IMG/VR virus record: IMGVR_UViG_3300024348_000133
Coordinates: 1 to 35,500 of that record
Reading direction: 5' to 3' (one strand)
Source of the DNA: a virus
DNA: 35,500 nucleotides
Positions 6,080 to 16,590 of the stretch are shown one piece after another; position 1 is the stretch's first letter; every line of letters starts with the position of its first letter. The notes below the pieces were generated by a model. The model had not been told where the DNA came from. It worked only from the letters and a program-made list of their open reading frames with translations, and did not search any database. Made by a program: the position numbers and the translations under genes.

Positions 6080-7600
6080 TTATTTTTTTATTTTTCTACC
6101 TTTACTGTCATAACCTAGTCCAGCCAATTCAGGATACTTCTTGAATAATTCTTCCTGACCAATGCCTCCTAAATCTTGACCTATCTGAGATAGTAATTTA
6201 CTTTTGTTAGTTTGATATGCAGCATCTCTTTGCAAGTTAGTCAATTTAGCTTTATCAGCCTGACCAATATTGAACTTTTCTGTAGCTTGATCAAATGCTT
6301 GAGCAGATCTAGCTTCTCCTCTATTCTCTGCACCAGCTTGCTGATATGCTTGAGATAGAGCTTTAGTTCCTTGAAGTTGAGATCCTAGTAAAGCAGCTCT
6401 TGCCTTAGAACTTGAACCTCCTGCACTAGATAATAATGCATCTCTGTTAGAAGCAGTTGCCTGTCTAACTGTATTTTGTAATCCTTGCTCATCAACTAAT
6501 TGTTGCTCATACTTTCTATTGCTTCTTCCGAATGCAATATCTTTAGGTTGCTCTAAATTTGAAAGTTGAGATATATTCATTGCAGCAGGTGCATACCTTA
6601 AGTTTTCAGGACTTAATATTTTGCTTGCTCCAAATCTAGCTTTATCTTTAAAAGATGGAGTTGGTGCATTTGATCCAAATGATCCTGCACCTAATTGTTG
6701 GTGCTCATCAAGAGGATTGTATGTTCCTGCAGCATCTATTCCAGACATATCCATTGCACTAGCAGGACTTCTCTCTCCTAGAGGATTAACCCCTGCAGTC
6801 ATTCCTGATAAATCCATTGCTTTAGCTACTGGATTAGCAAAAGGTTTTCCAAAATTCTGATCCATCATATCAGCATCATTCATGGCCATAAAGTCTACAT
6901 CTTTTGAAGGAAGTTGATCCAAATAGTTCTTTAAATCTAATCCAAACTTAGCCACATTACTTCCTTCCATTCCTGTATCCTTCATTGAAGCGTATAGATT
7001 GTTAGCCTTAGCTTTAGATACATCTTTATCACTTGGGCCTGAGAATCCACCTATTAGTCCACCACCAATAGCACCAATTGCATGTCCAAGCCCAGGAACA
7101 ATAGCTCCACCAACTTTGGCACCTGACATAGCTCCTTGTGCAGCATTGCCAGCTCTATCAGTATATTCTACTGAAGTCCTTCCGGATGTGTCAACCTTAT
7201 TGTTTCCTACCATTTTTGCCAAGTTTAATGCTCCAGTTGCAGCACCCATTATAGCTCCTACTCCAGGACCTTCTGCAGCTCCTTCAGCTCCTTTAGCACC
7301 ACCAAGAAAACCTTCAGTTGCTGAACTACCAAATAAACCACCTTCAGCAGATAGTGCACCCCCCATAAACATCTTGTTGTCACCAGTTGAATTAGCATCC
7401 ACTTTAGGCTTAGACAATTCTTCCTGCTTAGCTTTAACAAACTCTTGAGCTTGCTTTAGTCTACCTTGCATTTCATTCATTGTAGCAACTGATTCAGCAT
7501 CAGTTCTGTCCTTGAATTTATCATCAAGTATCTTACTTGCTTCTGCGAATGTCTTACCTTTTAAATACTTAGGCAAGTTAAATTGTGACATTATATCCAT
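6080..7600 (-). CDS. Gly/Ala-rich putative DNA-ejection (internal virion) protein, 506 aa
   Basis: The N-terminus (residues 1-70) is helical and charged. It is followed by a Gly/Ala-rich region (about 75-205) holding two hydrophobic, membrane-compatible stretches, near GVGAIMGAATGALNLAKMVG and GLGHAIGAIGGGLIGGFSG. The C-terminal 170 residues are Gln/Ala-rich and probably coiled coil, ending in a basic tail (GRKIKK). Soluble helical ends around Gly-zipper-like segments resemble podovirus ejection proteins such as T7 gp14, which insert in the envelope during DNA entry. Gaps to the flanking genes are 5 and 11 bases. The start at 7600 follows AAAAAAGAATAAT; an in-frame ATG three codons later is also possible. 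Function is inferred from composition and context. Confidence 0.75.
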   Translation of the reverse strand: MDIMSQFNLPKYLKGKTFAEASKILDDKFKDRTDAESVATMNEMQGRLKQAQEFVKAKQEELSKPKVDANSTGDNKMFMGGALSAEGGLFGSSATEGFLGGAKGAEGAAEGPGVGAIMGAATGALNLAKMVGNNKVDTSGRTSVEYTDRAGNAAQGAMSGAKVGGAIVPGLGHAIGAIGGGLIGGFSGPSDKDVSKAKANNLYASMKDTGMEGSNVAKFGLDLKNYLDQLPSKDVDFMAMNDADMMDQNFGKPFANPVAKAMDLSGMTAGVNPLGERSPASAMDMSGIDAAGTYNPLDEHQQLGAGSFGSNAPTPSFKDKARFGASKILSPENLRYAPAAMNISQLSNLEQPKDIAFGRSNRKYEQQLVDEQGLQNTVRQATASNRDALLSSAGGSSSKARAALLGSQLQGTKALSQAYQQAGAENRGEARSAQAFDQATEKFNIGQADKAKLTNLQRDAAYQTNKSKLLSQIGQDLGGIGQEELFKKYPELAGLGYDSKGRKIKK

Positions 7601-7611
7601 ATTATTCTTTT

Positions 7612-9411
7612 TTATGATAACCTGTAATTATCAAAATTGTTTTTATTATCTTCTTGGTAAGCTACAGTGTTTAGAGCTTCAATTATTTTGTCATTGTCAT
7701 AGGCTCTGTAGAAGTTATCCATTCCAAGACCCTTTTCTTTAACAAGCTTTCTTAATTTGTCAATATCAATTTGCTCACCAGGCTTCAACCCTAGTGAACC
7801 CCTGAACTCAGCAAAATTTCCATATGCCTCGTGAGGTCTATTTAAATACTCAAGTGTCCCGGGAGAATTCTTCTTCAAGAAAGTTTTATCTTTCTGATGG
7901 AATGCATTACCTAAAATACTAGTAAGCTTATCACTCATCACAGCATCTATACCTGAGGCATGAACTCTTTCATGAGTCTCAACAGGAACATTATCTTTAA
8001 AGCCCTCACCCATACGAATTACATCATTCACATAAGATGCTTTAGATCCTCTAGTGTTACCACCAACTTCTTTAGCAGTAGTCAGACCTTTTAATATCAT
8101 GTTGTCAATCTGCTCAGGCGTAACATTACCTTGCTCCATCATCCTCTGTCTAGTAATAGGATCATTGTATCTAGCCAAGAATGCCTCAGCAGGAGCATCT
8201 CTAACTGCAGAAATAAAGTCTACTTGCTCAGGGTTCTCTAATCCGAATACATTCTGAATATAACCTTGTCTTACATCAGGAACATGCATTGTCTCTCTAG
8301 GAACATGTTTAGCTTTGGACAAGTGTCCATATTTTGTTACATCAAGTGAATTGTCTGTTGGGATCTCTTCAGCTTTAGGACCTATTGAAGGTGCCTCTGT
8401 AGCTTCATATTCTTTCCCCTCTCCAGGGCCTGTTAATTTACCACCTTCTTTAAACACATTCATAGACTTACCGTCACTTCTAGTAAAAGTACCGTCAAGA
8501 CCAATGGAATTAGAAAAGATATAGTCATTCCATTTTGTCTCACCTTCCTCTACTAAGTTGGGCTTACCATTTGCTCCTATTCCCTGAGGTATTCCACCTA
8601 ATGGATTCTCTTCATGGGTACCACCATTTTCAAACCTATCTAATTCACCGCCATTAACATACATGTCATCATCTGACTTACCACCATACTTAAAATTATT
8701 AGGAGTCTGCAAACCTTGAGGTGGACTAAAGCCAGCTCTAGGATCTGATTGATCATTAGGCATATTGTTTGGAGTAACCAGTCCTTGAGGAGAATTGAAG
8801 TTACCATTAACTCTAGTATTATCTACTTGTTTTTTTGAGGCTTCGAAAGCAAGATTTCGAATAAACTCAGGACTATCACCCCTAACGCCCACATACTCAT
8901 CGCTAGGTATATTACTAGGATTAGTGTTCTGTTTCGAATAGTCTTCCATATACCCACTAAACTTCTTTGCATAATCTTCTGCTGTTAAATTAGTTTTACC
9001 TGGAACATTATATCCTTTATTTTTTAAATAAGAATCAACGCCACTCTTTCCTAAGAAATGTGTAAGTGCTGCTATAGATTCTTGAGGCAAGTCACTATTG
9101 TATCTAGCTTTAAGTGCTCTTGAATAAGTTGAATAATTAGGGAATCCTGCAAGCTTTCCATTAATGGCATTGTCCATTACCTTCTCCTGAAGTTCAGGAT
9201 TAGCTATAAATTCTCTTTGAGATTTGCCCTTTAGTAATGGGTCATTCTTAATATATCTCCATAGAAAATGATACTTCCCAGAAGCAGATGAGTTTGGGTT
9301 AGTCAAGTGTTTTCCTCCAGAAGATTCAAGCATGCCTATAGCATACTTGAAAGCTTCAGAGTTAAACTTCTTTTTATCATTATTTTTATTAGGCTTAGGA
9401 TCCTTTGACAT
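7612..9411 (-). CDS. Bifunctional virion protein: lysozyme/transglycosylase-like domain plus HExxH metallopeptidase-like domain
   Basis: The 599-residue protein appears to have three parts. Residues 15-160 look like a lysozyme-superfamily lytic transglycosylase: catalytic-type Glu29 in MLESSGG, then SASGKYHFLW (42-51) and an NPELQEKVMD helix. Residues 200-330 are a low-complexity linker with two SPQGL/PPQGL-TPNN copies, GG turns and a VEEGETKWNDYIFSN segment that I associate with crAss-like phage proteins. Residues 370-599 contain THERVHASG, with HExxH at 480-484. A downstream Glu (E528 in RPHEAYGNFAEF, or E535) could be the third zinc ligand. There is no signal peptide, so the protein is probably carried in the virion and used to open the cell wall at entry rather than for lysis. 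It has its own promoter immediately upstream. Both enzyme calls rest on motifs. Confidence 0.75.
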   Translation of the reverse strand: MSKDPKPNKNNDKKKFNSEAFKYAIGMLESSGGKHLTNPNSSASGKYHFLWRYIKNDPLLKGKSQREFIANPELQEKVMDNAINGKLAGFPNYSTYSRALKARYNSDLPQESIAALTHFLGKSGVDSYLKNKGYNVPGKTNLTAEDYAKKFSGYMEDYSKQNTNPSNIPSDEYVGVRGDSPEFIRNLAFEASKKQVDNTRVNGNFNSPQGLVTPNNMPNDQSDPRAGFSPPQGLQTPNNFKYGGKSDDDMYVNGGELDRFENGGTHEENPLGGIPQGIGANGKPNLVEEGETKWNDYIFSNSIGLDGTFTRSDGKSMNVFKEGGKLTGPGEGKEYEATEAPSIGPKAEEIPTDNSLDVTKYGHLSKAKHVPRETMHVPDVRQGYIQNVFGLENPEQVDFISAVRDAPAEAFLARYNDPITRQRMMEQGNVTPEQIDNMILKGLTTAKEVGGNTRGSKASYVNDVIRMGEGFKDNVPVETHERVHASGIDAVMSDKLTSILGNAFHQKDKTFLKKNSPGTLEYLNRPHEAYGNFAEFRGSLGLKPGEQIDIDKLRKLVKEKGLGMDNFYRAYDNDKIIEALNTVAYQEDNKNNFDNYRLS

Positions 9412-9416
9412 AATTG

Positions 9417-9447
9417 CAAATATAAGTTAATTAACATTTCTTGTCAA
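9417..9447 (-). promoter_or_regulatory. Bacteroidota-type promoter for the lysozyme/HExxH gene
   Basis: On the minus strand TTGACA (TTG at 9447-9445) is followed, 20 bases after its TTG, by TATATTTG (9424-9417), a perfect match to the TAnnTTTG -7 box. The box ends five bases before the ATG at 9411, so the transcript should begin at or within a few bases of the start codon. It lies in the 58-base gap after the muzzle gene, which is where a fresh promoter for the entry-protein genes would be useful. Confidence 0.65.
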
Positions 9448-9469: not shown

Positions 9470-12400
9470 TTACTCAGTATAGAATATTGTGATGTCATGC
9501 AAGATTAATTTCTTACCATCATCATTGTCAAATATAAATTCTGCATACCCCCAAGAACCTCTTACTCTTTCTCTAGATCCACTTACTCTAGGGAATTTAA
9601 TATTCCAATCTCTTATTCTTCTGAATGCATTCTTTCTAATAACTAAGTCAGCTTCATCAGACTCTTGATACTTATTCCACACCTTAACTGCAGTAAGTCC
9701 CTCATTATTAAGTATGTTGCCATCAGAATCCTCCATCTCAAGTCTATAACTTGCACCATTCATTACTAACTCTTTATTTTGAGCAACTAAGTGAAGTGTA
9801 ATAGAGCTTCTAAATGTTTCACCATAAAAGCTATTCTTATTACCTTTAAAGTGCTGCCACAATTGAGTGTTGTCTGAATTTGTAGATAGCATTGCAGTAC
9901 CTTTGTTAATATACCATGCAGGAATATAGTCATAATAACTTACAAATGCTCCAACTTTTTCATTGTAACATAAAGTAAAACTGTCATCTGATTGGGTGAA
10001 GGAGAAAAATACATCTCCAGTGCTTGCATTGTAGGCGAGGCTTACTCCGTATCCAGTAACTGGATTGTCCTCTTTTAGTTCAGAATAATTCATTCTATTT
10101 ATAAGTTCAGAATGGAATCCTTCTTTGTCAGAAAGATTTACAACACCCTGGCCATTAGAAAATAGTATTGTACTGTTCAAGATGTCCACAAAATAGAATC
10201 CCATTGGAGTTGAAATAACACCATTTCTATTCAATGAACCGCTAGTTGTAGTCAAGTAGCTGTACTGATAAAGTAAATCACCAGTCCCCATCTCTACAGC
10301 TAATCCATCTGATGCGCTAACTTGCACTCTAGGGTTAATCTGAATCAATGCTACGGCATTATCTTGTATTGCATAGATATTATCTCTGTAGTTTATCACA
10401 GCATTTACAGGTCCATACTTTCCATCAAGATCCATTTCTTCATTCTCTAAAAAATCTGTCCATGAATCTACGAATTCACCTGGGGTTTTAACGCCTGTAG
10501 CTAATATTCTTGTGTCAAACTCTTGAACCTTCTTAAGCTTATAGCTTTCAGAACCACTCTTTACAAGTGTAGGTTGTTGAGAATAAACTGTATTGTAATC
10601 TTGATAGTCATCATAAGAAGGCTTCCAGCTATTATCCCATTCAGATATAGATAAATCACTTCTATTTTTTAAGTCTATAGTAGTCTCAGTCTTGATGCTT
10701 ACTATCTCAGTGACTAAATTGTAATCAGTTGTTGAGATGTGCTCATCATCTGTAGCCATTTTTGTGAAAGTAAAAACAGATACAAATGTATCACCTGGAG
10801 ATTCTATAGTGACTTCAGTAGTATATATCTCTGTGTACTCACCTATATCAATATAAGTAGAATTAGACTTAGCTTCATATGTGTTGCCTCCATAGATTCC
10901 TCCTGAATAGAATACATAATCTTCTCTCTTGAACTCAGCAACTAATACACCATTCTCTTCAGATACTCCTGATAAGCTGTGTAAAGTTTCAATACTTTTT
11001 CTGTATGCTGCACTGTAGTCAGGATCATCTGGACCTTCTGCAAAAGTTATACATCTAGCTCCATTAGTATTACATCCTTTAATCTGAACAGCTGCATTAC
11101 TATTAACTCTGCCTGACTCTTCAAAACCATCCATGAGCATGGTCTTAAGATTGTTGCAGTATTTTAAATCACCATCATTATTGTAATTTGTATAATCTGC
11201 ACCAGCTTCAGTTACCTCAGGAGTTCCAAATAAGTCAAATTCTGTAGTTCCTGTAGCCTCGTGAAAGTCTCCTTGAAATGATTGATATATTTGGTGAATA
11301 GCCATAGAGTCTGTGCCATTGGTAGGTCCAAAGAATCCAACATCACTTATCCAAGATGCCTGACCCTCAATAACTAAAGGCTCAACACCATCAGTACCTT
11401 GATTGAATCCATTGATAAACTTAGTCTCAGCTGTATTAATTTCTGTAACTGGATTAGCTTCTGCTGCCCAGTTTGAAATTTCATCATACTCATAAAGACC
11501 TCTAATATTTAATTTGTATCCAGAGTCTATTTGTACATTCAGGAATGATATCTCTGGACTAAACATTTGCATTAGTCTATTGTGTTGGAAATTCTGTGCT
11601 CTCCAATCTCTAGATGAAGCAGCTTTAAATCCTTCAGAATAGTAATTCCATTCCATGTCAGATTCTGCATCATCATCAATACTAGTATATGCTAAATCAT
11701 GATAATCTTTACATCCTATTACAGGAGTAAGTCCTGAGAACATTCTAGTCAATGAAGGCATCTTTCTAGACTCAGTTGAATCAACAAGTTCCTTAACAGC
11801 AGATATTGAAACAGTTTTATCAGTGTGCCAATAAGAAGCAAGCATTGGATTAATCATTCCTTGAGCAAGAATAGTTCTATCAGAAAGCTGTCTGTCAGCT
11901 CTTATTATCCTGTACCCAATAGGCTTATCATCTTCAGTATCAAAATTGTCTTCATCCTCTAGCCATGTAGTGAACTCATCAGTCAATGTAACTTTCAATT
12001 GATTATAATTCCCATTCAGGTTTCCCTCAGGTGCTCTCAGATCCATTATCCAAGCAGCATTAGTATATTGACCTCTTCTATTAAAGAACTTGATTCCTAG
12101 CCTATAGAATTCATTGTCTTTAAAGAATTGTAAGTCCTCTGCCTCATCGTCAGTTAATGATGTTTGAAGAAATTCAACTTCAACATATTTTCCACTAGCA
12201 CCTAAAGTAGTAAAGTCTGATTGATATTTGTAAAGGTCATAATCTCTATTAATAGAATCATGCTTATCCGGAACTGAAAAATCTGCAGGAACAGTAAGTG
12301 TAGTTGAAGATAAGTTTCCATTTTCATCATAAGACACATTCTCCATTATAACGGCTGATCCAAACTCACTATAAGAGTAAGCTCTAGTATCTAGGTCCAC

Positions 12401-13534
12401 TTCAAATAATTGTTCCTTTACATTGATTGCAAATAGTGTATTATCTTTTGTAGATATATTCTTTGGAATTATTGGAGATGCGCCTAAAAATACAAACTCC
12501 TCTAATGATAATGTAGTTCCGTCAGATCCAGTATCAGTAAATGATAGAGTTCCTGAGGAATCAATTTCTTGATCAGCAATCAACTGAATCTCTGGAATTT
12601 CATTGTATGATGTGTATTTTATTGAATAAAGTTTTATATGTGTAAAGTTGGAGTCTATGTTTGGAACACTAACAGTAATAGATTTACCAAGATTTTCATT
12701 CAGTTCACCACCACCTAAATCTTGACCCTTATCAATTGGCGTAAGTTTAGACAATGGAGATGTAACTGTTTGAGCACCATTTAATATGTATAAGCTGTAT
12801 GCATACTGAATCATTCCTGTAGTGTGAGATCCTCCACTGAATATGCTGTCAATAGATACTTGAGATAATTTAAATGTACCAACTACATCAATTGAAGTAG
12901 GTGGCAAGTCTATTAAATTTAATGAATCACCATTCTCAACACTTTGTCTTATATTGATGTATCTAATTTGATGAGCTCCATCAACTAAGTATACTTTTTG
13001 AATAACAGAATTTTCATAATTAAATAATATATCCATTAAGTTATTAGAAGATAATCCAAGGTTATTCATATAAAGTAATTCCAGATCAAAGTCTTCATCA
13101 TTCAATCCAGTCAATTCCCATATACAATCCCAACCATTATCATCAGTAGTGATTATTAATGCTGAGTCTCTAAGTTCTTTCACTCCAATTATCTTCTGAG
13201 TACCAGATGTATTATTTGTGTAAGTTGAACCATTAACTGTAACATATTCTTCTTCTAATTGACATCTAGGAACTGTAGCTTCAGTTGCTGAATACTCCAA
13301 AGTTTTTGATTCAGATCCTGCATTATAAATTATTTTAGTATTCTCGTAGTCAAACTCGGGTGTAGGAATGGTAATAACAAGTTCATTTCCGAATTCATTG
13401 GTCAGTGCAAAAGTGCTCTCTTGATCTGTCGCAATTATCCGAATGTTTTGAGCATCATAATATCTCTTAGAATCTTTATTCTTAGCAATATCTTTTGTCA
13501 TTCCACTAAATTCGAAACTTCTTTTTTTAATCAT
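9470..13534 (-). CDS. Muzzle / tail stabilization protein (1354 aa)
   Basis: This 1354-residue soluble, beta-rich protein is very acidic in the middle and has no signal peptide. Its first residues (IKKRSFEFSGM, then YYDAQNIRIIATD and ALTNEFGNEL) and its end (RERVRGSWGYAEFIFDND and LILHDITIFYTE) match the pattern I recall for crAss-like stabilization/muzzle proteins. Those form the distal part of the short tail barrel through which DNA and cargo leave. The length also fits that class. Its ATG overlaps the TAA of the upstream adaptor gene by one base (TAATG), which suggests translational coupling. The downstream gene begins after a separate promoter. Family membership is recalled, not computed. 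Confidence 0.8.
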   Translation of the reverse strand: MIKKRSFEFSGMTKDIAKNKDSKRYYDAQNIRIIATDQESTFALTNEFGNELVITIPTPEFDYENTKIIYNAGSESKTLEYSATEATVPRCQLEEEYVTVNGSTYTNNTSGTQKIIGVKELRDSALIITTDDNGWDCIWELTGLNDEDFDLELLYMNNLGLSSNNLMDILFNYENSVIQKVYLVDGAHQIRYINIRQSVENGDSLNLIDLPPTSIDVVGTFKLSQVSIDSIFSGGSHTTGMIQYAYSLYILNGAQTVTSPLSKLTPIDKGQDLGGGELNENLGKSITVSVPNIDSNFTHIKLYSIKYTSYNEIPEIQLIADQEIDSSGTLSFTDTGSDGTTLSLEEFVFLGASPIIPKNISTKDNTLFAINVKEQLFEVDLDTRAYSYSEFGSAVIMENVSYDENGNLSSTTLTVPADFSVPDKHDSINRDYDLYKYQSDFTTLGASGKYVEVEFLQTSLTDDEAEDLQFFKDNEFYRLGIKFFNRRGQYTNAAWIMDLRAPEGNLNGNYNQLKVTLTDEFTTWLEDEDNFDTEDDKPIGYRIIRADRQLSDRTILAQGMINPMLASYWHTDKTVSISAVKELVDSTESRKMPSLTRMFSGLTPVIGCKDYHDLAYTSIDDDAESDMEWNYYSEGFKAASSRDWRAQNFQHNRLMQMFSPEISFLNVQIDSGYKLNIRGLYEYDEISNWAAEANPVTEINTAETKFINGFNQGTDGVEPLVIEGQASWISDVGFFGPTNGTDSMAIHQIYQSFQGDFHEATGTTEFDLFGTPEVTEAGADYTNYNNDGDLKYCNNLKTMLMDGFEESGRVNSNAAVQIKGCNTNGARCITFAEGPDDPDYSAAYRKSIETLHSLSGVSEENGVLVAEFKREDYVFYSGGIYGGNTYEAKSNSTYIDIGEYTEIYTTEVTIESPGDTFVSVFTFTKMATDDEHISTTDYNLVTEIVSIKTETTIDLKNRSDLSISEWDNSWKPSYDDYQDYNTVYSQQPTLVKSGSESYKLKKVQEFDTRILATGVKTPGEFVDSWTDFLENEEMDLDGKYGPVNAVINYRDNIYAIQDNAVALIQINPRVQVSASDGLAVEMGTGDLLYQYSYLTTTSGSLNRNGVISTPMGFYFVDILNSTILFSNGQGVVNLSDKEGFHSELINRMNYSELKEDNPVTGYGVSLAYNASTGDVFFSFTQSDDSFTLCYNEKVGAFVSYYDYIPAWYINKGTAMLSTNSDNTQLWQHFKGNKNSFYGETFRSSITLHLVAQNKELVMNGASYRLEMEDSDGNILNNEGLTAVKVWNKYQESDEADLVIRKNAFRRIRDWNIKFPRVSGSRERVRGSWGYAEFIFDNDDGKKLILHDITIFYTE

Positions 13535-14241
13535 TATTGTATTCTTAAATATTCTTGTTCACCTAAAAATTCAAATCTTTTCTGGAACTCAGTCCTGCTA
13601 GGAATCATTTGAGTAATCATATTTGTGAGAGATTCCATCTCATCAATACTTGGCATAATCATATCTGCATGAGCTTGTCCAACATTAAACATGTAATCTT
13701 GCTCAGCTTTGTTAAGCTTCTGGCCAGACACAATATCCATGTCATTAAGGATGTCGAACCATTTCCATTTTACATAAGACTCAATACATCTTAAAAGGAT
13801 AGGGTTGTCAATAATAAGTGGATAACACTCTTCATCTGTCATTATGTATTTGTAGATTACTTCAATTTCACCGCCTTCAAAGTTTGTATTAATATACTTA
13901 CTGTTAAGACTGTATGTCATGCTAGATCTTAATACATTATAGTCACCTGACTCTAAAAAGTCCTGGCTAACAAAGTCTGTACTAGTCATTGTCTCTATGG
14001 CACCCCTGTCAGTTCTGGCAATACTTTCAACTCTCATCATATTGGCAGGTTTGGAAGCTCTGTAGTTTACCACTTTAATCTTCTCCCTCTTATTACCATA
14101 CAAAGCAGGAGCATCAATTATTCTCATTACTTCTAATGCATTGTCTATAATGAATTCATAGGTAACCTCTTTCATAACTGGGTTCCTATATAATCTGTCA
14201 GCTATTAATTTAATGCTAACTGTATCTGCTGTGTTTGCCAT
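13534..14241 (-). CDS. Ring / tail-stabilization adaptor protein (235 aa)
   Basis: The protein begins ANTADTVSIKLIADRLYRNPV and has a helical N-terminal third, a central beta segment (about residues 95-135) and a helical C-terminus (about 140-235) with a YVKWKWFDILND patch. It lies directly upstream of the muzzle gene, sharing one base with it (TAATG), and downstream of two other small tail genes. In short-tailed Bacteroidota phages this place encodes P22 gp4-like ring proteins that join portal or barrel to the muzzle. I assign that role from gene order, size and general resemblance. Which specific ring it forms cannot be decided here. The leader AAAATAATAATA before the ATG is typical for this window. 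Confidence 0.7.
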   Translation of the reverse strand: MANTADTVSIKLIADRLYRNPVMKEVTYEFIIDNALEVMRIIDAPALYGNKREKIKVVNYRASKPANMMRVESIARTDRGAIETMTSTDFVSQDFLESGDYNVLRSSMTYSLNSKYINTNFEGGEIEVIYKYIMTDEECYPLIIDNPILLRCIESYVKWKWFDILNDMDIVSGQKLNKAEQDYMFNVGQAHADMIMPSIDEMESLTNMITQMIPSRTEFQKRFEFLGEQEYLRIQ

Positions 14242-15428: not shown

Positions 15429-16538
15429 TTAATAATATTTTCCACCAAACCAGAATCTTCCGGATTCATCAGGAACTATTTGTGTTATATGACAATTGCC
15501 ATAATCATCTATCATGTTTATTGCAAATCCATTTGACCAACTCTCCTTCATAGCTCTTGTTGCGTATCCAAATACTTTAGATTTAAGATTAGCGCAAGTA
15601 CCTATATTGTAAGCAGCGTTAGGTCCTTCTCTATACATTTGAACTCTGTGAGTGTGTACATAAGCACAACTCTTTCCGAATGTATCTAAATGTTTCTTAG
15701 CGTTATGGATATTAAAATATATCCCGTGAAAGATCTGGAAGTCATTTCCTAATGTGATATAGTCTTGGCTCCATTTATCTTTTACATTATACCCTCTACG
15801 CCAAAGCTTAAGTGCATCTTCTGGAGAATCTAATGGAGTTTTTGCATTATCCATTACTGACATCCACCTGTTGTACCTGTCTTCATGATTACCATACAGA
15901 AAAGTTTTCCAACATCCTCTAGGAAGATGTCTATCAAAGTCATCTAATAGTTCATTTCCTACAGCATACTCATCATCAAGTGTTAGTCCTGGAACAGCTG
16001 TAAATCTACCTCTATCATGAGATGATAATGGATTCAAGTCTAAGAAGTCACCCATTAAGTGAAATCCTTTTATTAGTTCAGGATAGTCTTTTATTAATTC
16101 AATGATACTTCTGTGCAATTGAACATTATGAAATGGTACGTGATTACACCCAAGCATAATATGCATTCCAACTTGATCAGATATTTCTGGAACATGAAAT
16201 GCTTTCAAAGCTTTCTTTCTTTTTAATATAGATGCACCGGCAGTAACGTCAACACTTTTATCAATTAGTTTAAGACCTAGTTTCCCAGCAATCTTTGAGA
16301 GTTCAGCAATAGCTTCTGCATTTTCTGATGCTACGCCCACTTTTTCTGGTTGTGAACCAACTCTCATGTGATTCTTAAATTCCTTTTTTAATTCCTTCTT
16401 GACTTTTTTAATGTCTTCCAGATTAAATATGCGTCCATTAAATTTTTTACTTAATGCTCCTTGAATTCCCTTATTACCCCAATTCAAATAACTACTCTTC
16501 TTCCTCAAAAAGCTTTTAATAATTTCAGTACTATCCAT
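15429..16538 (-). CDS. Calcineurin-like metallophosphoesterase with helical N-terminal extension (369 aa)
   Basis: The start is placed at the ATG at 16538, which follows AATAAAACAAAAT. The longer frame begins with TTG inside the promoter and adds eight residues. Numbering is from this ATG. Residues 1-115 are Lys-rich and helical, possibly nucleic-acid binding. The phosphoesterase core follows: LGCNHVPFHN (129-138), MGDFLDL with Asp164 and Asp167, YGNHEDR (215-221), IFHGIYF, and VHTHR near residue 287. These match motifs I-V of the dinuclear metallophosphoesterase fold. The exception is motif I (D-x-H), where Cys131 replaces the metal-binding Asp. The gene lies among ring genes and has its own promoter, so the product may be a virion component or assembly factor acting on a phosphoester or nucleotide. 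The substrate is unknown. Confidence 0.85.
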   Translation of the reverse strand: MDSTEIIKSFLRKKSSYLNWGNKGIQGALSKKFNGRIFNLEDIKKVKKELKKEFKNHMRVGSQPEKVGVASENAEAIAELSKIAGKLGLKLIDKSVDVTAGASILKRKKALKAFHVPEISDQVGMHIMLGCNHVPFHNVQLHRSIIELIKDYPELIKGFHLMGDFLDLNPLSSHDRGRFTAVPGLTLDDEYAVGNELLDDFDRHLPRGCWKTFLYGNHEDRYNRWMSVMDNAKTPLDSPEDALKLWRRGYNVKDKWSQDYITLGNDFQIFHGIYFNIHNAKKHLDTFGKSCAYVHTHRVQMYREGPNAAYNIGTCANLKSKVFGYATRAMKESWSNGFAINMIDDYGNCHITQIVPDESGRFWFGGKYY

Positions 16539-16559
16539 ATTTTGTTTTATTAATTTTCT

Positions 16560-16590
16560 CAAAAATAAGAAAAAAATTCTTATATGTCAA
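16560..16590 (-). promoter_or_regulatory. Bacteroidota-type promoter for the metallophosphoesterase/tail operon
   Basis: On the minus strand TTGACA (TTG at 16590-16588) is followed, 20 bases after its TTG, by TATTTTTG (16567-16560), matching TAnnTTTG exactly. The ATG at 16538 is 21 bases beyond the -7 box, leaving a short A-rich leader. A 7-bp dyad (ATAAGAA/TTCTTAT) lies between the two boxes and could be an operator. Two TATAGC cores lie farther upstream (about 16594-16621), but not at the spacing seen in the other promoter class of this window. Confidence 0.65.

What the first reader, a model, noticed from the sequence alone, without database searches (positions are those of the whole stretch)
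7612..9411. Lysozyme-like domain fused to an HExxH metallopeptidase-like domain in one virion protein
Residues 15-160 carry Glu29 in MLESSGG and SASGKYHF, as in lytic transglycosylases. Residues 480-484 are HERVH, and a downstream Glu (528 or 535) could complete a zinc site. The two are joined by a repetitive Gly/Pro/Asn linker. One chain that cuts both glycan and peptide or protein would suit wall penetration during DNA entry. The promoter just upstream and the location among ejection-type proteins support an entry role.
Basis: partly seen in the sequence, partly recalled or inferred. Interest (0 to 1): 0.65.

Follow-up and report, generated by a model that had tools for sequence, protein, structure and literature searches.

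The report
Two-enzyme ejection protein of crass-like phage
A crass-like phage of aquatic bacteria carries, inside its particle, one protein that joins a cell-wall-cutting enzyme domain to a predicted zinc protease around a portal-docking segment, probably to open the host cell wall as the DNA goes in; both enzyme activities are predicted, not measured.

Summary
The 599-aa gene is on the minus strand (9411-7612). It encodes cargo protein 1, an ejection protein, of a Crassvirales phage: it has the crAss_CARG1 domain (PF25725, E=1.6e-19) and lies directly after the muzzle and ring genes. Residues 15-163 are predicted to fold as a lytic transglycosylase, with E29 at the catalytic Glu and invariant in 12/12 relatives. 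Residues about 381-599 are a gluzincin-like metallopeptidase domain: H480, E481, H484 and E528 are invariant in 18 sequences, and E528, not E535, is the third ligand. The 'linker' contains half of the portal-docking CARG1 domain. The other half starts the next gene, a split found in 19 of 86 loci. Ten distinct aquatic phages share the lysozyme-anchor-zincin chain. The same zincin family is fused to an unrelated lysozyme (Phage_lysozyme2) twice more: Cellulophaga phi17:2/phi4:1, and gut phage cr108_1 in reverse order. Repeated pairing supports a joint role in crossing the wall. The peptidase substrate is unknown. No paper describing this combination was found in the held library. Verdict: new variant of a known kind (phage ejection/polyvalent proteins).

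The parts
7612..9411 (-). cargo protein 1 gene, 599 aa (P0001)
   Evidence: translation; PF25725 E=1.6e-19; phmmer hit to gp45 cargo protein 1 of phicrAss001, 7qog, E=4.7e-8
8923..9369 (-). lytic-transglycosylase-like domain, residues 15-163
   Evidence: AlphaFold2 model pLDDT 79; VIA Z 9.5, rmsd 2.9-3.2, 118-120 aa to SLT Cj0843; 12 homologues
9325..9327 (-). E29, predicted catalytic acid
   Evidence: invariant 12/12; end-to-end offset of VIA rows puts it on MltE residue 64 (4hjy is titled MltE-E64Q)
8644..8904 (-). low-complexity linker, residues 170-256
8479..8643 (-). N-half of the crAss_CARG1 portal-docking domain, residues 257-311 (profile 18-72 of 133)
   Evidence: docking of this domain to the portal in phicrAss001 from PMC10172136
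7615..8271 (-). gluzincin-like metallopeptidase domain, residues 381-599
   Evidence: A6/A7 alignments; model pLDDT 82; VIA list made up almost entirely of zincins; BFVD E=3.1e-7 to phi14:2 structural protein
7960..7974 (-). HERVH, residues 480-484
   Evidence: H480, E481, H484 invariant in 18 sequences
7828..7830 (-). E528, predicted third zinc ligand
   Evidence: invariant in 18 sequences; E535 is Asn in cr114_1 and cr125_1
9417..9447 (-). promoter TTGACA-N17-TATATTTG, 5 nt before the ATG
   Evidence: 11/12 match; same motif upstream of L118, L033, L036, L037, L125
6080..7600 (-). next gene, 506 aa: C-half of CARG1 at its start, Gly-zipper/hydrophobic helix near 163-183, and the C-terminal region of gp45
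   Evidence: PF25725 positions 75-125, E=0.019, below the gathering score; own C-half profile E=3.9e-6; BLASTP E=3e-5 to gp45; hydropathy
7412..7594 (-). C-half of CARG1, residues 3-63 of the 506-aa protein
9470..13534 (-). muzzle protein gene
   Evidence: PF25731 E=1.4e-202
13534..14241 (-). tail ring protein 1 gene
   Evidence: PF24228 E=8.7e-48

Best explanation
P0001 is a co-packaged ejection protein (crassvirus cargo protein 1) with two enzyme ends and a docking segment between them. Shown here: an N-terminal lytic-transglycosylase-like domain with E29; a middle segment that is the first half of the portal-docking CARG1 domain, whose second half starts the next gene; and a C-terminal gluzincin-like peptidase domain with H480, E481, H484 and E528. 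Inferred by homology with phicrAss001 gp45: the N-terminal end lies in the tail barrel and leaves first, while the CARG1 segment docks on the portal inside the capsid. Inferred: on infection the transglycosylase domain opens the glycan strands, and the zincin, drawn out behind it, cuts peptide or protein in the envelope along the entry route. The next gene product, which carries the membrane helix and the other half of the anchor, would form the channel.
For: Family and synteny. Storage and N-to-C ejection of gp45: PMC10172136. Transglycosylase fold and E29. Zincin motif, conservation and fold; out-of-sample profile hits of 3e-20, 6e-17 and 3e-13. Ten distinct three-part proteins. Relatives are in virions: phi14:2 gp081 and phi4:1 gp041 are structural by MS/MS as annotated in the records. 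Repeated lysozyme+zincin fusion: phi17:2 (PF18013 E=9.1e-32 plus two HExxH domains) and cr108_1 (N-terminal zincin, C-terminal PF18013 E=4.5e-20). Other cargo-1 proteins carry known wall hydrolases: Phage_lysozyme2, Glucosaminidase, Phage_lysozyme, Glyco_hydro_19. Split anchor.
Against: No enzyme assay exists for either domain. Neither domain scores against any Pfam peptidase or lysozyme model, and the Foldseek PDB matches are not significant. VIA Z for the zincin is only about 5. Known HExxH-plus-Glu gluzincins cut proteins, and I know of no clear peptidoglycan endopeptidase among them (own knowledge). The zincin also occurs as a gene of its own near terminase and portal genes, where an assembly role is possible. 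L036 keeps the lysozyme and anchor but only about the last 24 residues of the zincin, so the peptidase is not essential in every lineage.
Confidence: 0.6

Rival explanations
1. The zincin is a processing protease: it cuts P0001 itself or neighbouring cargo (for example freeing the lysozyme or the anchor half) during packaging or at ejection, as proposed for the zincin domains of polyvalent proteins such as P1 DdrB.
For: Iyer et al. 2017 name autoprocessing as a likely role of phage zincins (PMC5512222). Stand-alone zincin genes sit near portal, terminase and GroEL genes. phi14:2 and phi17:2 carry two copies in one chain.
Against: phicrAss001 and most crassviruses with the same cargo lack the domain, and L036 appears to have lost it while keeping the rest, so it is not a general need of the assembly pathway.
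Confidence: 0.25
2. The zincin is an injected effector that cleaves a host cytoplasmic protein (for example in defence or transcription) after entry; the lysozyme is only its delivery partner.
For: Some zincin domains in polyvalent and toxin proteins are thought to act as effectors (PMC5512222). The C-terminal side of the anchor lies inside the capsid and would leave late (PMC10172136). The zincin is a mobile module found in several cargo genes.
Against: Repeated direct fusion to wall hydrolases of two different families and in both orders points to a wall- or envelope-linked target.
Confidence: 0.13
3. The C-terminal domain is a zincin fold with a structural or binding role and no proteolysis.
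For: No activity is known, and the Foldseek PDB matches are weak.
Against: All four expected active-site residues are invariant across 18 sequences with identities down to 23-26%.
Confidence: 0.05

Closest known systems
phicrAss001 gp45, cargo protein 1 (7qog, PF25725)
   Same: Locus directly after the muzzle gene; CARG1 portal-docking domain; presumed ejection protein
   Different: gp45 has neither the transglycosylase nor the zincin and keeps the whole CARG1 domain and a membrane helix in one chain; here CARG1 is split over two genes and the membrane helix is in the second
Cellulophaga phage phi14:2 gp081 (Crassvirales, virion protein by MS/MS as annotated)
   Same: CARG1 N-half plus the same zincin family; split anchor
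   Different: Two zincin domains and no lysozyme domain
Cellulophaga phages phi17:2 gp042 and phi4:1 gp041 (Lightbulbvirus)
   Same: Virion protein joining a lysozyme to the same zincin family
   Different: Lysozyme is of the Phage_lysozyme2 family; two zincins; no CARG1 match
T7 gp16 (ejection protein with an N-terminal transglycosylase, catalytic E37; PMC8954989)
   Same: N-terminal transglycosylase on an ejection protein, used for wall passage
   Different: No peptidase domain; different core and membrane regions
phi29 gp13 (own knowledge, not tested)
   Same: One virion chain with a lysozyme and a metallopeptidase for wall entry
   Different: Its peptidase is an M23 (LytM) endopeptidase, not an HExxH zincin; Gram-positive host; tail-tip protein
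Polyvalent proteins with MPTase and lysozyme domains (Iyer et al. 2017, PMC5512222)
   Same: Zincin and lysozyme in one phage-delivered chain; same core order of elements
   Different: Those are large multi-effector proteins; membership of this zincin in one of their 12 clades was not tested

Membership tests
Crassvirales cargo protein 1 | crAss_CARG1 domain above the gathering score | tested here: met
   70.8 bits against a cut-off of 27
Crassvirales cargo protein 1 | Gene directly after the muzzle, in the ring-muzzle-cargo order | tested here: met
   PF24228, PF25731; same order in L003-L015
Crassvirales cargo protein 1 | Packaged in the virion and ejected | not testable with these tools
   Only relatives: gp45 by cryo-EM and MS, phi14:2 gp081 annotated from MS/MS
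Lytic transglycosylase / lysozyme-like fold | Fold of the superfamily | tested here: met
   Best 20 VIA rows are lytic transglycosylases, g-type lysozymes and one related chitinase, Z 9.5 to 6.4; Foldseek alone was not significant
Lytic transglycosylase / lysozyme-like fold | Catalytic Glu in the first helix | tested here: met
   E29 invariant 12/12; aligned offset matches MltE E64
Pfam SLT (PF01464) | Profile score above the cut-off | tested here: not met
   No match for P0001 or any of 12 relatives, so it is not filed in this Pfam family
Gluzincin metallopeptidases | HExxH plus a downstream Glu | tested here: met
   H480, E481, H484, E528 invariant in 18 sequences; spacing H484-E528 is 44
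Gluzincin metallopeptidases | Zincin core fold | tested here: inconclusive
   Order of elements fits the core described in PMC5512222; VIA rows nearly all zincins but Z only 3-5.4; Foldseek PDB not significant
Gluzincin metallopeptidases | Zinc binding and proteolysis | not testable with these tools
   needs a purified domain
Known Pfam peptidase family | Profile score above the cut-off | tested here: not met
   None for 18 members
Polyvalent proteins (Iyer 2017) | Several unrelated catalytic domains in one phage-delivered chain | tested here: met
   Two predicted enzyme domains on one cargo chain; delivery itself is inferred
Polyvalent proteins (Iyer 2017) | MPTase belongs to one of the 12 polyvalent clades | not tested
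   Clade alignments not at hand

The most novel reading that the evidence does not exclude
The C-terminal domain is a peptidoglycan stem-peptide or cross-link endopeptidase of the gluzincin (HExxH...E) class, so that one ejected chain cuts both bonds of the wall, and the portal anchor assembled from two chains acts as the hand-over point between the wall-cutting chain and the channel-forming chain.
Probability: 0.2. Interest if true: 0.7.

Novelty: new variant of a known kind. Interest (0 to 1): 0.52.

Why it matters
How crassviruses, the most abundant phages of the human gut, cross the cell wall is not known; the structure paper on phicrAss001 names no wall enzyme among the cargo. This locus shows that cargo protein 1 is a carrier on which wall enzymes are exchanged, identifies an unnamed zincin family tied to lysozymes in three arrangements, and shows that the portal-docking domain can be split between two proteins. 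Each point can be tested in a cultured phage, Cellulophaga phi14:2 or phi4:1.

Tried and rejected
E535 as third zinc ligand: rejected, it is Asn in cr114_1 and cr125_1 and not conserved in the second domains of phi14:2 and phi17:2. Single-protein scans with P0001 found only its near-identical contig, and an alignment that was too diverse gave no search pattern. Foldseek alone gave no significant PDB match for either domain, and haemoglobins rank among the hits of the transglycosylase model, so the fold claims rest on the second look by VIA and on conservation. A scan of bacterial and archaeal genomes found no zincin relative, which does not show that none exists. L033 and L037 carry a further module that looked GH19-like to me; a comparison with phi14:2 gp088 gave no support, so it is left unnamed. 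Paper searches found no description of a lysozyme-zincin cargo protein in crassviruses, but only open-licence papers were searched.

Full report
What was claimed and what is there. The gene is on the minus strand, 9411 to 7612, 599 residues. HExxH would be expected 0.014 times by chance in a protein of this length and composition.

What protein it is. P0001 scores 70.8 bits against crAss_CARG1 (cut-off 27), the portal-docking domain of crassvirus cargo protein 1, and matches gp45 of phicrAss001 in the PDB at E=4.7e-8. Upstream lie the muzzle (E=1.4e-202), ring 1, ring 2, ring 3/4 and the crassvirus capsid protein (E=7e-156). The same order surrounds cargo protein 1 in reference crassviruses. 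The capsid protein is at most 50% identical to described phages, and no described phage matches the region at DNA level beyond short stretches of about 64-76% identity. A 68-kb record is nearly identical where it was compared (99.95% over 11.8 kb). In phicrAss001, residues 425-552 of gp45 dock on the portal inside the capsid, residues 214-245 lie in the tail barrel, and the protein is proposed to leave first, N-terminus ahead (PMC10172136).

N-terminal domain. Twelve relatives share residues 15-163; E29, G32, G33, S41, S42, A43, G45, Y47 and F49 are invariant. The model (pLDDT 79) has as its best structural relatives the lytic transglycosylases Cj0843 (Z 9.5, rmsd 2.9-3.2, 118-120 residues), Slt, MltC, MltE and phiKZ gp144, and g-type lysozymes. 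The first aligned residues put model position 29 on MltE residue 64, which entry 4hjy names as its E64Q mutant. By the same offset it falls on residue 390 of Cj0843, 503 of P. aeruginosa Slt, 217 of MltC and 115 of gp144, which I recall as their catalytic glutamates. This offset assumes no gap within the first helix. Foldseek alone was not significant. Weak sequence hits go the same way: phiKZ gp144 and a PHROG transglycosylase for two members at best E=9.8e-5.

C-terminal domain. In 18 sequences from marine and gut phages, with identities down to 23-26% to P0001, the invariant residues are H480, E481, H484, Y522, E528, R537, N581 and A584. E535 is not invariant. The model (pLDDT 82) has helix, three strands, the HExxH helix and a further helix that carries E528 near its start; this is the zincin core as described for polyvalent proteins (PMC5512222). 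VIA rows are nearly all zincins (PepO Z 5.4, MtfA-type hydrolase 5.1, lethal factor 4.7, PPEP-1 4.6, thermolysin-type about 4), though the scores are modest and Foldseek gave nothing significant in the PDB. Against predicted viral structures it matches the phi14:2 and phi4:1 structural proteins (E=3.1e-7, 1.2e-6). Proteins not used in the profile were then found by it: cr109_1 (3e-20), cr108_1 (6e-17) and the gene after cargo 1 in L075 (3e-13).

How the pieces travel. Ten distinct proteins from aquatic phages have lysozyme, CARG1 N-half and zincin in this order: P0001, L022, L026, L027, L030, L038, L039, L042, L043, L118. L033, L036, L037 and L125 have the lysozyme and anchor but no zincin. 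L036 keeps a piece that matches the last 24-28 residues of the zincin (E about 0.001 in a two-sequence comparison), which suggests loss. phi14:2 has the anchor and two zincins. phi17:2 joins Phage_lysozyme2 (E=9e-32) to two zincins. cr108_1 has the reverse order, zincin then Phage_lysozyme2 (E=4.5e-20), in a separate gene. cr114_1, cr125_1 and cr109_1, read with TAG as Gln, have a zincin gene shortly after the portal. Of 52 diverse cargo-1 proteins without this lysozyme, all match CARG1 and a few carry other known wall hydrolases. Pairing of one peptidase family with two lysozyme families, in both orders, is the best evidence that the two act on the same barrier.

The split anchor. The Pfam match in P0001 covers profile positions 18-72. 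The next gene matches 75-125 at its very start, with E=0.019, below the gathering score. A profile built from the second half in unsplit relatives finds it there at E=3.9e-6. In 19 of 86 distinct cargo-1 ORFs the second half is in a following ORF; in all but phi14:2 it begins within about ten residues of that ORF's first Met, and 58 ORFs are unsplit. In L033-L035 another gene lies between. The next gene also holds the C-terminal region of gp45 (E=3e-5) and a hydrophobic Gly-zipper stretch like the membrane helix of gp45, which P0001 lacks. So in this lineage the single gp45 chain corresponds to two: one with the enzymes, one with the membrane part.

Mechanism. Shown by sequence or model: the domains, their conserved residues, the anchor and its split. 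Inferred: storage in the tail and capsid and N-first ejection (from gp45), wall cutting by E29 (from fold and conservation), and peptide or protein cutting by the zincin. I put about 0.6 on the whole account. The weakest step is the substrate of the zincin; processing of phage cargo (0.25) and a cytoplasmic host target (0.13) remain open.

Novelty. Virion lysozymes, T7 gp16, and zincin-lysozyme fusions in polyvalent proteins are known (PMC8954989, PMC5512222). New here, as far as the libraries show, are the crassvirus cargo-1 form, a zincin family without a Pfam model, its repeated pairing with lysozymes, and the split portal anchor.

Noticed in passing
window 7412-7600 (-) and 8479-8643 (-): The portal-docking CARG1 domain is split between two consecutive genes; the same split occurs in 19 of 86 distinct cargo-1 loci.
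   Followed up: yes
window 9417-9447 (-): A TTGACA-N17-TATATTTG promoter 5 nt before the start codon is conserved before cargo protein 1 in five relatives; such a short distance suggests a leaderless or nearly leaderless transcript.
   Followed up: partly
L006 13624-13740 (phi14:2): The second half of CARG1 follows in the same frame directly after the stop codon of gp081, upstream of the annotated start of gp080: the start is probably misannotated, or the stop is read through.
   Followed up: no
L033 6501-9374: A 958-aa repeat-rich, surface-protein-like gene is inserted between the two genes that hold the halves of the CARG1 domain.
   Followed up: no
L076, L104, L105 (start of cargo 1): A different lysozyme-like domain (HES...GGGPGRGxxQFE) occupies the N-terminal slot before the split anchor; no Pfam match in L076 or L105.
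   Followed up: partly
L129 6086-6439 (cr109_1): A small protein annotated as putative zincin superfamily protease lies directly before the HExxH zincin gene, after the portal.
   Followed up: no
window 15429-16562 (-): A metallophosphoesterase-like gene (phrog_221, E=3.9e-16) lies within the tail gene block; phi14:2 has one in the same region.
   Followed up: no
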